Source: Desulfobacterales bacterium
GTDB lineage: Bacteria; Desulfobacterota; Desulfobacteria; Desulfobacterales; ETH-SRB1
NCBI GenBank assembly: GCA_030610995.1
Contig: JAUWQO010000012.1
Span: 1 to 42,739 of the forward strand
Reading direction: 5' to 3'
Length of the DNA stretch: 42,739 nucleotides
Part shown: positions 13,138-36,030 of the stretch, piece by piece
How positions within the stretch are numbered: the first letter of the stretch is position 1
Layout of the letters: the number at the start of each line of letters is the position of its first letter
Notes under the pieces: model-generated
The model's database searches: none
The model's input: only the letters and a program-made list of their open reading frames with translations
Told to the model about the DNA's origin: nothing
Translations under genes and position numbers: made by a program

Positions 13138-13274
13138 TTAGTGTCTGTCCGAAAAATAGCCAAAATTGTCATTTCGAGCGGAGCGAGAAATCTTATGTAT
13201 TGAAAATACGTGCGTTAAAAGATTTCTCCCTTTGGTCGAAATGACATAAAAGAGGGTTTTCGGACAGACACTAA
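13138..13274. repeat. Nested palindrome: GTGTCTGTCCG arms, TCATTTCGA core
   Basis: Perfect 18-base outer arms begin TTAGTGTCTGTCCG at 13138-13155 and end CGGACAGACACTAA at 13257-13274. Inside is a second inverted repeat: TGTCATTTCGAGCGGAGCGA from 13167, matched by a right half ending GGTCGAAATGACA at 13246. The same core occurs inside entirely different arms at 19712-19859 and 35148-35288. The element sits in the gap between recC and recB. Confidence 0.9.
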
Positions 13275-17254: not shown

Positions 17255-19237
17255 ATGACTCATCTTAATACAGACAGACAACGGCTTTTACAGCAGATAT
17301 TAGAATATAATATTACAGGAACGCATAATATGGGTGAGCTTTGCTCAAGCCATCCCTTTTTTTATACAAATGAGCTTTCCTTTTTGGATTATATGACTAT
17401 CAGGGATTTGCGCGAACTTGGCGGTTATCAGGATGATATCTGTATTTTTGCGGTATTAATGGCTATGTTTGAGGTATTGCAGGAAGGAAGTCTGTGTTTA
17501 AGTCTTGATAAAAACAGCCTGTCATCCAGGCTGCAAATTTTTATGGAAAAAGATATGGCCGAAGAAATCGCCGATCAATTTCTGACCAATCTTGCCGGCA
17601 ATAAATATGATAACCTTATTGCGAAAGATCGTTCTTTGTATCTACCCCTTGTTTTATATGAGTTCGCTGAACAAAAATATTTATACTTTCAAAAATTTTA
17701 TTTTCATGAAAACAGGCTGAGAAATCGCATAAAAACCATCCTGCAGGCAAAATCATCTCTTGAACTTAATGAAAAACAGCAAATAAGTCTTTTAAATGAA
17801 ATACTGTCCGACCCTCTTTCTCTCCGTATTTCAAAAAACGGAGCTTTGATAATAAAAGACCCGCATCAAATTGATGCAATAAAACTGGCTCTTAGCTCGC
17901 AGTTTTCGATTATCTCGGGCGGGCCCGGAACAGGCAAGACATCTCTTATGGTTAATATCCTCCGCTGCCTTGTAAGGGCCAAAATAGATACGGAAAAGAT
18001 AGATACGGAAAATATTATGCTGGCAGCGCCTACAGGCAGGGCAGCGCAAAGAATGACCGAAGCGGTATCCGGCAATATCAGCACAATATTAAATCCGTCT
18101 TCTGAAGACATTAAGCTGTTAAAGCTGAAAGGCGCCACATTACATAAGATTTTAAAATACAAACCATATAAAAATAATTTCTATTATAATGATACCAATC
18201 CTCTGCCCGCATCGGTGATAGTTGTGGATGAAGTATCAATGGTCGATGTTGTCATGATGGATAAATTTTTACAGGCAGTCGATCCTGCAGAGACCAGGCT
18301 TATTTTTTTAGGAGATAAAGATCAGTTGCCCTCGGTGGAGGCAGGCGCTGTTTTTGCGGAAATGATTCCCAACCAAACCACTGAGTTTACGGATCGAGTG
18401 GTTCTGCTGAAGAATGTCTATCGATCCGGCGCTAACCTGCTGCAGCTCGCAAAACAGATCAATCAGGGAAAGTGTCCGGAATACGAACCGGTTTCGTTTA
18501 ACTCAGCTCTTCAACTCAAAGAGGATCAATGGGCATTTGTACAAAGCGCAAGCTTAAATCAATGGAAACATCACCTGTATTCATGGGTACAAGATTATTA
18601 CATGAGCCCAATGCCTGGGGATAATATAAGTTATAAAGAATTAATATTTGAATCAGGGAAAATGGAGTCTGAGGAACTTATGACTTCTGCAACAGGGCAG
18701 GATATCTTATATCGAATTTTTCATGTGGTTGGATGCGGAAGAATTTTAACAATCCTGCGCAATGGAATTTATGGCTGTACATGGATAAACAGTATAATTA
18801 ATGAATATTTAAGCTTTGAATTGGAGCCGGCATCCCGGACAGTGGAGAGTGTTTTTACAGGCGCTGTCATTATCATTACACGCAATGACTATTCAAAAGA
18901 GCTGTTTAACGGAGATGTCGGAGTTGTAATTAAAGACAAAAGCGGAGCTTACAGGGCCTTTTTCCAACGATTTGATTCCTTTATCAGCTTTAGCATCGAT
19001 ACGTTGCCGTCATGGGAGCTTGCCTTTGCCATGACAGTGCACAAAAGCCAGGGATCTGAATTTGATGATGTGCTGGTTGTGCTGCCTGATAATGATAATC
19101 ACAGGTTATTAACCAGGGAGATTATATACACCGGCATTACAAGGGCAAAAAATCGGCTGATTCTTTATGGATCAAAATCAGCATTTAAAACCGCATTGCA
19201 AAGGGTAATTGAAAGGAAGTCTGGTTTGATGTGGTAA
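17255..19237 (+). CDS. recD: Exodeoxyribonuclease V subunit alpha (RecD)
   Basis: RecD is the fast 5'-3' superfamily 1B helicase of RecBCD, 660 residues. An N-terminal domain of about 170 residues contacts RecC. It is followed by Walker A GPGTGKT at 223-229, Walker B VVDEVSMVD, motif III GDKDQLPSVEAG, and the C-terminal motifs TVHKSQGSEFDDV and YTGITRAKNRLILYG. RecD, not RecD2, is indicated by the short N terminus and the recC-recB-recD context. It lies 13 bases after recB with no strong ribosome-binding site, suggesting coupling. The internal segment AKIDTEKIDTENI holds a small in-frame duplication (IDTE twice). It ends 11 bases before the end of a convergent small gene. Confidence 0.94.
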   Translation: MTHLNTDRQRLLQQILEYNITGTHNMGELCSSHPFFYTNELSFLDYMTIRDLRELGGYQDDICIFAVLMAMFEVLQEGSLCLSLDKNSLSSRLQIFMEKDMAEEIADQFLTNLAGNKYDNLIAKDRSLYLPLVLYEFAEQKYLYFQKFYFHENRLRNRIKTILQAKSSLELNEKQQISLLNEILSDPLSLRISKNGALIIKDPHQIDAIKLALSSQFSIISGGPGTGKTSLMVNILRCLVRAKIDTEKIDTENIMLAAPTGRAAQRMTEAVSGNISTILNPSSEDIKLLKLKGATLHKILKYKPYKNNFYYNDTNPLPASVIVVDEVSMVDVVMMDKFLQAVDPAETRLIFLGDKDQLPSVEAGAVFAEMIPNQTTEFTDRVVLLKNVYRSGANLLQLAKQINQGKCPEYEPVSFNSALQLKEDQWAFVQSASLNQWKHHLYSWVQDYYMSPMPGDNISYKELIFESGKMESEELMTSATGQDILYRIFHVVGCGRILTILRNGIYGCTWINSIINEYLSFELEPASRTVESVFTGAVIIITRNDYSKELFNGDVGVVIKDKSGAYRAFFQRFDSFISFSIDTLPSWELAFAMTVHKSQGSEFDDVLVVLPDNDNHRLLTREIIYTGITRAKNRLILYGSKSAFKTALQRVIERKSGLMW

Positions 19238-19425: not shown

Positions 19426-19609
19426 TTTAAATATCCTTTTGTTGATAGTTTTTGTAGTAATTTTGGTTTGTTAGCAGAAAGGATTATTTGTGTCAAGTTG
19501 TTTGATGGCCGGTTTTTATTAACCAATCTCTCATAGTCTAATTGACAGCGGGCATTATATTTTCTATTAATAACCATTCCGAAATATTTTGATTTACTTT
19601 TTACATAAT

Positions 19610-19899
19610 AGTTCAGCCACAAAGACACTAAGACACCAAGATTATAATATTAATGTACAGTATATGCCGTATCTACAACTTTTTTTCTTCTCTTTTTGAT
19701 AAAGGTTTAAATTTGATGAATTTGTAAAAAGTCAAATTCGTCGAATGTGTCATTTCGACCGCAGGGAGGAATCTTATCTTTTCAATAGGTTGCAGAATAA
19801 AGATTTCTCGTTTCACTCGAAATGACAGGCCAGAGGGACTTTTTACGAGTTCATCAAAATTAAAGTTCTTTTGTGCCTTTGTGACTTAGTGGCTGAACT
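19610..19899. repeat. Triple-nested inverted repeat
   Basis: Three inverted-repeat levels share one centre. The outermost arms start AGTTCAGCCACAAAGACAC at 19610 and end TTAGTGGCTGAACT at 19899, about 85% complementary. Next come TTTGATGAATTTGTAAAAAG from 19712 and its partner at 19838-19859, complementary at 20 of 22. The innermost core is TGTCATTTCGACCGCAGG from 19748, closing with TCACTCGAAATGACA at 19827. Arms and core match, in inverse orientation, the element at 35148-35288. No gene is visible between 19426 and 19929. Confidence 0.85.
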
Positions 19900-19929
19900 T
19901 TTATTTTTTTATTATGAGGTCTTTGAAGT

Positions 19930-20337
19930 ATGCCGAAAAAACAGGCCAGCCATAGGGCAGACAAGCCGGATATAGTGAAAACAAACATCCTGACTGCTCT
20001 GGAGTACAAATATAAGGGCCAAAGGGATATTGATATTGTAATAAAACAACCTGAATTCACATCGGTATGCCCCATGACAGGTCTTCCGGATTTTGGATGC
20101 ATAACAATTAAATATACACCGGATGTGAAGATTGTTGAATTAAAGTCGCTAAAGTTTTATATGTTACAATTCAGGAATGTCGGTATCTTCTACGAACATT
20201 TGGCCAACCATATTCTAAATGATTTAGTCGGTCTGCTTGATCCAAAGAGGATGGAGGTTTCAGGAGATTTTACAGCGCGTGGCGGAATTACTACCACGGT
20301 TACTGCAATATACGAGAGGAAAAATGAGGATTCATAA
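19930..20337 (+). CDS. queF: PreQ0 reductase QueF (queuosine biosynthesis)
   Basis: QueF reduces the nitrile of 7-cyano-7-deazaguanine (preQ0) to the amine preQ1 with NADPH, a step in making queuosine for tRNA. The 135-residue form is the single-domain (YkvM-like) type. The thioimide-forming Cys47 and the acid Asp54 lie in SVCPMTGLPDFG. The family signature ELKSLKFYMLQFRN runs from 70 to 83, and FYEHLANHIL contains the substrate-binding Glu89. The start has GAGG at about 19917. No preQ1 riboswitch is evident in the short leader. A lipoprotein gene overlaps the last 14 bases, so the two are probably co-translated, although no shared pathway is known. Confidence 0.93.
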   Translation: MPKKQASHRADKPDIVKTNILTALEYKYKGQRDIDIVIKQPEFTSVCPMTGLPDFGCITIKYTPDVKIVELKSLKFYMLQFRNVGIFYEHLANHILNDLVGLLDPKRMEVSGDFTARGGITTTVTAIYERKNEDS

Positions 20338-24675: not shown

Positions 24676-24939
24676 TTTAATTGGTTATCCTTATTTTGAT
24701 GAATTCATAAAAAGTTCAATTTACCACAGAGCGCACAGAGAACACAGAGACAACTATTTGTAATTACTGGATAGCGCTAACGGTTAGCGCTGATGCTTCA
24801 CTTCGTGTCACTACGTGCCCCGTTTTCACGGGAATGACAACCAGGCGAAATTTTGACTTATTATTAAATCATCGATATAATATATAAAATTATTTCATTT
24901 TTATTCAAAATATACTTTTAAAGCAAGGATTTTTATATC
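24676..24939. other. Divergent intergenic region made of repeat fragments
   Basis: No gene is seen here. It includes a solitary arm TTGATGAATTCATAAAAAGT (from 24702) and the run CCACAGAGCGCACAGAGAAC. It also has a perfect palindrome AGCGCTAAC-G-GTTAGCGCT at 24773-24791 and half of the core found at 22376 (CGGGAATGACAA near 24830). The palindrome might be an operator for either flanking gene or just another repeat. Confidence 0.6.
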
Positions 24940-31415: not shown

Positions 31416-31791
31416 GTAACAGTTCAGCCACCAAGACACCAAGTCGCAAAGGAAAGACATATTTTCCAAAAGCTTATATGAAAGGAATCCCGCATTCCGC
31501 GGGACTAAAAGAACTTATAAAATCCCAAATTTCAAGCATCAAATTACAAATAAATCCCAAATTTCAATATTCAATAACCAAAACATGTTTGGAGTTTCAA
31601 ATTTAGGTCATTTACGGGTTTTGAATTTTGGTTATTGTAATTTATTTGATATTTATGATTTGTTGTTTGTTATTTCAGGAAAGGAAATTCCTATACTATA
31701 AATTTACAGATATTGCTTTTTTACTTCTGCATAAGAAATATAATTATTTTAGAATGTTAGTGTCTTTGTGACTTTGTGGCTGAACTGTTAC
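31416..31791. repeat. Nested palindrome with GTAACAGTTCAGCCAC arms
   Basis: Outer arms begin GTAACAGTTCAGCCAC at 31416 and end GTGGCTGAACTGTTAC at 31791, with 16 exact bases then imperfect continuation. The inner pair is CAATAACCAAAAC (from about 31572) and GTTTTGAATTTTGGTTATTG (ending about 31638). The same arm family, without the extra GTAAC, surrounds 19610-19899. Solitary arms lie at the 3' end of recC and at about 32029. No gene is seen in 31408-31818. Confidence 0.8.
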
Positions 31792-35147: not shown

Positions 35148-35288
35148 GATGAATTCGTAAAAAGTCTCCCAAACTTGTCATTTCGAGCAAAGCGAGAAAT
35201 CTTTATTCTATAACATACTGAATACATAAGATTTCTCCCTGCGGTCGAAATGACACATTCGATGAATCCGACTTTTTACGAATTCATC
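35148..35288. repeat. Nested palindrome: GATGAATTCGTAAAAAG arms, TCATTTCGA core
   Basis: Perfect 19-base arms start GATGAATTCGTAAAAAG at 35148 and end CTTTTTACGAATTCATC at 35288. The core runs from TGTCATTTCGAGCAAAGCGA at 35176 to CTGCGGTCGAAATGACA at 35255. The reverse complement of this element matches 19712-19859, including a spacer between arm and core. Just upstream, at 35091, lies TTGACAGGATTTACAGGATA, also found in inverse near 13484. Confidence 0.92.
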
Positions 35289-35401: not shown

Positions 35402-35643
35402 TCCCCCTTTCATAAAGGGGGATTAAGGGGCATAAGCGCTTAAATAAGCATTTTTTTAACCCCAGAAGTAGTTGTAGCAAAATTCACAATTGACAATTAG
35501 CAATTGATTATTGACAATTTGTAGTGATAAATGAAGTAGTTATCGACACTGACCCATTTTGTATAATAATTAATAATCAATTGTGAATTACTAATTGTTA
35601 ATGATTCCCCCTTATTTAAGCGCTTATGGGGATTAAGGGGGAT
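35402..35643. repeat. Palindromic element inserted in a GGGGATTAAGGGG repeat
   Basis: The 18-base arms CATAAGCGCTTAAATAAG (35431-35448) and CTTATTTAAGCGCTTATG (35611-35628) are perfect complements. They are flanked by GGGGGATTAAGGGG on the left and GGGGATTAAGGGGG on the right in direct orientation. The interior carries loosely complementary CAATTGACAATTAG-type stretches. This looks like a palindromic element that landed inside, or recombined with, an older repeat. The following 35644-36030 shows no gene. Confidence 0.75.
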
Positions 35644-36030
35644 TTCAAACAACTAAAGTGTTGCATTTCGTCAAATATCCGACGTATGGGCAAGTTGTTG
35701 TCTGGAAGTGTCAAACCGACAATATGCGGCCATAGAGAAAATCAGATAATAACCTATTAATATTACAACCATATTTTTTTAACCTTAAAGATTTATTCCC
35801 CGGCGGCACACATATTGCTGATGTATTTATATAAAAATCCCCCCATTTACCGCCTTGACTTTGATAGAAATCAAGGGTGCAAAACTTGAGTTTTTATCTC
35901 AGATGTTGCTGACTTGACAGATTTATAAATTATATGATAGCAAGACAAAACTAAGATTTTCGCCTCCATTGTCTGCGTGCAATGCACAGGCAGGCAATCC
36001 GCTTCAGGCGGATTTGAAAGGTGTCAATTT

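What the first reader, a model, noticed from the sequence alone, without database searches (positions are those of the whole stretch)
19610..19899. Three concentric inverted repeats between recD and queF
One locus has three pairs of arms sharing a single centre: TTCAGCCACAAAGACAC outside, GATGAATTTGTAAAAAG in the middle and TCATTTCGA inside. The two inner levels occur by themselves, reversed, at 35148. The outer level occurs around a different interior at 31416. This is the clearest sign that insertion took place into the centre of an existing palindrome.
Basis: seen in the sequence. Interest (0 to 1): 0.55.

Follow-up and report, generated by a model that had tools for sequence, protein, structure and literature searches.

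The report
Miniature transposons nested inside each other
Three short palindromic repeats between two genes of a sulfate-reducing bacterium are separate miniature mobile elements that jumped into one another like nested dolls, and they show how a common repeat with no known transposase of its own could spread as a passenger.

Summary
The three pairs of arms are real, but they do not share one centre. The middle and inner levels are concentric within 2.5 nt (19785.0 and 19787.5); the outer centre lies 30-33 nt away (19754.5).

The outer level is a MITE with GTAATAGTTCAGCCAC ends and 8-bp target duplications. The middle level is a second MITE (GATGAATTCGTAAAAAGTC ends, 6-bp AANNTT duplications). 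The inner level is a REP dimer of the CGTC/TGTC-tagged kind. Middle and inner travel together as a 141-bp unit.

Three other outer copies lack that unit at the exact site (TTTAAAATTAAAG); the window copy shows AAATTT/AAAATT around it. One insertion into an existing palindromic element is well supported. It lies at 0.70 of host length and a site at 0.49 is unused, so centre targeting is not supported.

Relatives: the 141-bp unit sits upstream of recB in one, with an exact AAAATT duplication, and is absent from two others. The outer element is absent between recD and queF in all six readable relatives. REP-free frames (45-65 bp) exist, so a surviving insert must look central.

New variant of a known kind. 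Best novel reading: transposase-less CGTC REPs spread as cargo of MITEs.

The parts
19597..19604 (.). left 8-bp target duplication of the outer element, CTTTTTAC
   Evidence: 6 of 8 match to the right copy TTTTTTAT
19605..19639 (+). outer MITE, left arm (GTAATAGTTCAGCCAC-type end, here ATAATAGTTCAGCCAC)
19640..19708 (.). left part of the outer interior, shared with the empty copies C146, C43 and C97
19709..19714 (.). left 6-bp duplication of the middle element, AAATTT (one substitution against AAAATT)
19715..19733 (+). middle MITE (mid-A), left terminal repeat
19748..19827 (.). inner core: inverted dimer of a TGTC-tagged REP, TGTCATTTCGA...TCGAAATGACA
   Evidence: tag definition from PMC3733652
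19837..19855 (-). middle MITE (mid-A), right terminal repeat
19856..19861 (.). right 6-bp duplication of the middle element, AAAATT
19870..19904 (-). outer MITE, right arm
19905..19912 (.). right 8-bp target duplication of the outer element, TTTTTTAT
31416..31791 (.). second outer copy with a different (AAATCCC...) interior
   Evidence: relatives G006 and G004 lack it
35148..35288 (.). mid-A with the same type of inner core, without the outer, reversed
13138..13274 (.). the same inner core inside another frame (TTAGTGTCTGTCCG...CGGACAGACACTAA)

Best explanation
The locus is a stack of miniature transposons. (1) Outer: a MITE with GTAATAGTTCAGCCAC ends that makes 8-bp duplications, most likely moved by an IS66-family transposase. 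(2) Middle: a MITE frame (mid-A) with GATGAATTCGTAAAAAGTC ends that inserts at AANNTT with 6-bp duplications; its transposase is unknown. (3) Inner: a CGTC/TGTC-tagged REP dimer carried inside the frame. Middle plus inner is an older 141-bp composite that moves as one unit. One such unit inserted into the AAAATT site of a resident outer element upstream of queF. The levels look concentric because a REP-free frame is only 45-65 bp and mostly terminal repeat, so an insert can lie only between the arms if the element is to stay mobile; insertions that break an arm stop amplifying. Shown: duplications, empty host copies, an orthologous empty site for the composite, REP-free frames, the same core in several frames. 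Inferred: the transposases, and survivorship rather than targeting as the cause of centrality.
For: Three empty outer copies and the AAATTT/AAAATT duplication. Duplications family-wide: mid-A 6 bp in 22 of 40 against 4.8 expected (exact inner 4 bp 17 against 0.8), outer 8 bp in 14 of 34 against 0.3; mid-A 44 of 69 in loci of other genomes. Orthologous empty site: G006 has the 141-bp unit between two AAAATT upstream of recB, G005 and G007 lack it. REP-free frames of 45, 58, 59 and 65 bp. The inner core occurs in other frames. A 3.3-kb element of G001 with an IS66 transposase (PF03050) has ends GTAACTATTCAG, identical over 12 nt to the outer variant GTAACTATTCAGCCAC.
Against: No autonomous element with mid-A ends was found: none of 20 listed wide-spaced pairs had the 6-bp duplication. 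G000 itself has no IS66 match, and the G001 IS66 element has no matching 8-bp flanks. The window outer's duplication has 2 mismatches. The mid-A 6-bp excess is diluted by AT-rich flanks. How REP dimers first entered the frames is not shown.
Confidence: 0.85

Rival explanations
1. Structure-guided insertion: the elements are steered to hairpin loops or cruciform centres, so nesting is targeted.
For: Several REP loops hold a 22-nt palindrome (TCCGCCA...TGGCGGA), by eye at GCGAG|CGAAGC in four places. In other bacteria REP dimers lie inside palindromes (PMC3733652, section 7).
Against: In the window the insertion is at 0.70 of host length with a central AANNTT site unused. The 22-nt palindromes gave only 3 of 29 above the 95% null for complementary flanks. 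Two independent mid-A-in-outer lines are about what chance gives (rough estimate).
Confidence: 0.08
2. Core exchange: frames and cores are swapped by recombination or gene conversion between copies, so nesting at a locus need not mean insertion there.
For: Chimeric elements with a left arm of one frame and a right arm of another around one core (C2:1725). At the queF site four relatives share one mid-A left junction with different interiors (by eye).
Against: It does not explain the AAAATT duplication with three empty outer copies at the window locus or the orthologous empty site upstream of recB.
Confidence: 0.04
3. A selected RNA hairpin controlling recD or queF: the stem is kept because it acts as terminator, attenuator or mRNA stabiliser.
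For: The 300-nt RNA folds far better than shuffles (-94.8 kcal/mol, z = -8.57, 0 of 200 shuffles as good), and it ends 25 nt before the queF start codon.
Against: The element is absent in all six readable relatives at this site and the window has no Rfam match. Strong folding follows from the inverted repeats alone.
Confidence: 0.03

Closest known systems
CGTC-tagged REPs, CGTC-1 = dRS3 of Neisseria (PMC3733652; abstract, passages, sections 6, 7, 14 read)
   Same: Tag CGTC or TGTC, stem beginning with AT, short loop, mostly dimers, no transposase of their own; dimers inside palindromes are reported for Halothiobacillus CGTC-1 and, for GTAG REPs, Anabaena.
   Different: Here the enclosing palindromes are mobile frames with target duplications, of several families, and REP-free frames exist; the paper found none in Halothiobacillus or Anabaena.
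Bacterial MITEs (RUP, NEMIS/Correia, Nezha; PMC2229807, PMC10969869, passages)
   Same: Short, non-coding, terminal inverted repeats, target duplications, intergenic.
   Different: Frames as short as 45-65 bp, routinely carrying another palindromic element; no description of nesting of this kind in the passages read.
IS66-family MITEs
   Same: GTAA ends and 8-bp duplications (family rule recalled); an IS66 element of the same genus shares 12 terminal nt.
   Different: The autonomous partner is not in G000 and the match is limited to the first 12 nt.
REPINs and RAYTs (PMC2817692 passages; PMC3116915 listing only)
   Same: Two inverted REP units forming one hairpin, high copy, intergenic.
   Different: No GTAG head; none of 11 Y1 transposase genes is flanked on both sides by these REPs within 1.5 kb.

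Membership tests
MITE (outer and mid-A) | terminal inverted repeats | tested here: met
MITE (outer and mid-A) | target site duplication of fixed length | tested here: met
   8 bp outer, 6 bp mid-A against re-paired flanks; 44 of 69 in other genomes; orthologous empty site
MITE (outer and mid-A) | related autonomous element with the same ends | tested here: inconclusive
   outer: IS66 element of G001 shares 12 nt; mid-A: none found
IS66-type ends (outer) | GTAA termini and 8-bp duplications (recalled) | tested here: met
   two IS66 elements of relatives begin with GTAA. The window copy itself begins ATAA
CGTC REP (inner core and its relatives) | CGTC or TGTC tag | tested here: met
   base before GTC is T or C in 76 of 81 (own) and 76 of 81 (other genomes) tags inside mid-A
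CGTC REP (inner core and its relatives) | 8-9 bp stem with AT first, 4-5 nt loop, CCA tail | tested here: inconclusive
   GTCATTCCCGCGAAGGCGGGAATCCA units fit by eye; the TTCGA core has an internal mismatch and a CTT tail
CGTC REP (inner core and its relatives) | predominantly HH dimers | tested here: inconclusive
   dimers with tags outwards are common; the paper's definition of head was not read
REPIN mobilised by a RAYT | a Y1 transposase gene flanked by two inverted copies of the REP (PMC2817692) | tested here: not met
   11 Y1 genes; within 1.5 kb none has the REP on both sides; one has a GTCATTCC-type unit on one side, one a GTCATTGCGAG dimer on one side

The most novel reading that the evidence does not exclude
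CGTC-type REP dimers, described as lacking any dedicated transposase, spread as cargo: they are captured inside very short transposon frames of several unrelated families and dispersed by the frames' transposases within and between species of Thermodesulfobacteriota and perhaps other phyla. Cores and frames are also reshuffled by recombination, giving a modular set of nested palindromes.
Probability: 0.45. Interest if true: 0.7.

Novelty: new variant of a known kind. Interest (0 to 1): 0.5.

Why it matters
The 2013 survey of REPs (PMC3733652) ends with the open question of what moves CGTC repeats. Here is a genome group in which they sit in frames that carry the marks of transposition, with REP-free frames also visible, so the question becomes testable by comparing close strains. 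It also gives a plain reason for 'concentric' palindromes that needs no centre-seeking recombinase: only inserts that spare the ends of a very short element are amplified.

Tried and rejected
Y1/RAYT transposases as movers of the inner core: 11 genes found, none flanked by the core on both sides. IS66 in G000: none. Autonomous mid-A element: none (of the wide-spaced intervals only some of the ORFs were scanned, 7 proteins). Rfam: 0 matches in the window. Flank complementarity of 16 paired GTCATTCC cores from 30 loci: uninformative, because shared mid-A frames inflated the null and 0 of 16 passed; by eye about 10 lie in mid-A frames (L194 and L195 are one element), and the 14 'without partner' are too many because my partner pattern was strict (L187 and L193 show degenerate partners). 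Loop test of the 22-nt palindrome: 3 of 29 above the 95% null, not convincing. Literature: repeat strings, nested MITEs, Desulfobacter with MITE, REPIN with MITE, IS66 with MITE, CGTC REP after 2013: no description of this arrangement among what I read in that library; subscription journals are mostly not held. Small dispersed repeats of cyanobacteria (recalled) were not found.

Two alignments placed gaps badly and were not used: recC-recB in G001 and G006/G005/G007. Those junctions are read from the sequences printed and the BLAST coordinates.

Full report
OBSERVATION. The three inverted pairs are present between recD (17255-19237) and queF (19930-20337). Outer arms 19605-19639/19870-19904 pair at 29 of 35 positions, middle arms 19715-19733/19837-19855 at 17 of 19, inner arms 19748-19775/19800-19827 at 22 of 28. 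At equal spacing the window reaches these values at 1, 4 and 6 positions of about 42,500. The centres are 19754.5, 19785.0 and 19787.5, so only the two inner levels are concentric.

FAMILIES. The window is contig C187 of a 3.02-Mb, 200-contig assembly. The middle-arm motif has 80 + 78 matches with up to 3 mismatches, control 0. In the stretches held (about 305 kb, taken around repeat copies, so not a random sample) there are 40 facing pairs, 96-300 bp long. Their flanks carry 6-bp duplications: 22 of 40 with at most 1 mismatch against 4.8 expected from re-paired flanks; for the inner 4 bp, exact in 17 of 40 against 0.8. The consensus target reads AANNTT. The outer element has ends GTAATAGTTCAGCCAC and 8-bp duplications: 14 of 34 (at most 1 mismatch) against 0.3. 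Both are therefore MITE-like. A further frame with GTGTCTGTCCGAAAA ends shows flanks such as TAAATTA and TAACTTA on both sides (8 pairs), too few for a firm length.

THE INSERTION IN THE WINDOW. Three other outer copies (C146:49786-49936, C43:10691-10846, C97:3618-3775) align along both sides and lack exactly the middle+inner block. They read TTTAAAATTAAAG; the window reads TTTAAATTT[unit]AAAATTAAAG, a 6-bp duplication with one substitution. The site is at 0.70, 0.71 and 0.71 of host length; in the C146 copy another AANNTT site at 0.49 is unused. This supports insertion into an existing palindromic element and speaks against aiming at its centre.

MIDDLE PLUS INNER AS A UNIT. Six of the 40 own-genome pairs, the window copy included, are 141-bp elements with the TTCGA core, and three more (152-164 bp) carry it with small changes. 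Upstream of recB, G006 has TTGTAAAATT[141 bp]AAAATTAGAG where G005 and G007 have TTGTAAATTAG (sequences printed): an orthologous empty site with an exact 6-bp duplication.

INDEPENDENCE OF THE INNER CORE. The same core lies in a frame with GTGTCTGTCCG arms (six of eight pairs carry both inner arms with nothing between, a seventh has another palindrome in its loop), in a frame with ACCCTACAACGACACTT arms and in one with GAGACCTTTGC arms (by eye). Conversely, mid-A frames hold several core types. Of the 72, 43 contain at least one GTCA[TC] tag (34 in both directions), 25 longer ones contain other sequence, and 4 are 45-65 bp with no core. In the own genome 36 of 40 contain the tag, 31 in both directions. 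The named records are mostly Desulfobacterota, with Nitrospirae, Bacteroidales and Neomarinimicrobiota bins among them; binning errors cannot be excluded.

OTHER NESTS. An outer>mid-A>REP composite occurs at C60, C106 and C135 with different flanks, at C60 with the exact 8-bp duplication ATAATTTT. C59 has an outer with a GAGACC frame and a GTCATTGC core, with a relative lacking it at C71. C34 has an AAATTGG element with ends GTAGCCGTTCACGG between two CCCAAATT inside an outer (by eye). So nesting is a general habit of this genome.

RELATIVES AT THE SAME PLACES. recD-queF synteny is readable in six relatives (G001, G004, G005, G006, G007, G009); none has the outer element. G002 has queF, but its contig begins 66 nt upstream. 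Four of the six (G001, G004, G006, G009) have a mid-A left arm at one and the same junction with different interiors; G005 has scrambled remains and G007 none (by eye). At 31416 four relatives are readable: G006 has no element, G004 only GTTAC between TATTTTTTA and TGTTTTTA, G003 a short outer-type element with TATTTTTA on both sides, G005 another palindrome. At 35148, G004 has 43 bp where G000 has about 845. Between recC and recB, G001 has 22 bp where G000 has about 497. These results show turnover; none is an exact one-level intermediate of the window locus.

MECHANISM. A mid-A transposase (not identified) inserts the frame at AANNTT. A REP-free frame is 38 bp of ends plus 7-27 bp, so any surviving insert must lie between the arms. 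This explains the look of insertion into the centre without targeting. Rough expectation for mid-A in outer elements by chance: about 79 frames, at least 34 outers of about 0.2 kb and about 550 kb of non-coding DNA (18% of the window by my gene list) give about one; I saw two independent lines. This is an estimate, not a test. The outer is probably moved by an IS66-type transposase: a 3.3-kb element in G001 with PF03050 and ends GTAACTATTCAGGGG shares 12 nt with the outer variant GTAACTATTCAGCCAC. The IS66 rules (GTAA ends, 8 bp) are recalled; two IS66 elements seen here begin with GTAA. How the REP dimer first entered a frame is open; recombination between shared cores also occurs (C2 chimera).

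KNOWN WORK. PMC3733652 (abstract, passages, sections 6, 7 and 14 read) defines CGTC REPs, including TGTC-tagged ones and Neisseria dRS3, says they lack a dedicated transposase, and notes REP dimers inside palindromes in Halothiobacillus and Anabaena, with no REP-free palindromes found there. PMC2817692, PMC10969869, PMC2229807 and PMC9769881 were read in passages. The arrangement here is a new variant: the enclosing palindromes are transposon frames with duplications and REP-free copies.

ORGANISM. G001 and G007 have contigs of the same length as records titled Candidatus Desulfaltia sp. and Eth-SRB1, so G000, in the genus of G001, is probably a Candidatus Desulfaltia (Desulfobacterales). This is inference.

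Noticed in passing
own genome, 29 distinct places, e.g. C132:12913-12943, C106:3427-3448: A 22-nt palindrome TCCGCCA(8)TGGCGGA is scattered through the genome and, by eye, sits in or beside REP hairpin loops in about 11 of 29 places; the complementarity test was not significant.
   Followed up: partly
L359:470-3802 (G001:C93): A 3.3-kb IS66-type element carries, besides the transposase, a protein matching DruA (PF14236).
   Followed up: no
window 35405-35645: Another apparent nest: AAGGGGGATTAAGGGG...AGCGCTTAAATAAG arms around an AATTGACAATTAG-type palindrome.
   Followed up: no
window 24698-24873: A degenerate mid-A frame with a CGTC-type core on one side.
   Followed up: no
G004:C36 near 45153-45170 (L394), against window 31416: GTTAC between two near-copies of TATTTTTA looks like the relic of a deleted outer-type element, which would mean near-precise loss.
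   Followed up: no
just upstream of queF in G001, G004, G006, G009 (L147, L145, L144, L149): The spot 5' of queF has been hit or rebuilt repeatedly: one shared mid-A left junction with different interiors.
   Followed up: partly
C60:4869-5260 against C106 and C135: Copies of one composite differ by extra palindromic pieces inside the REP hairpins.
   Followed up: no
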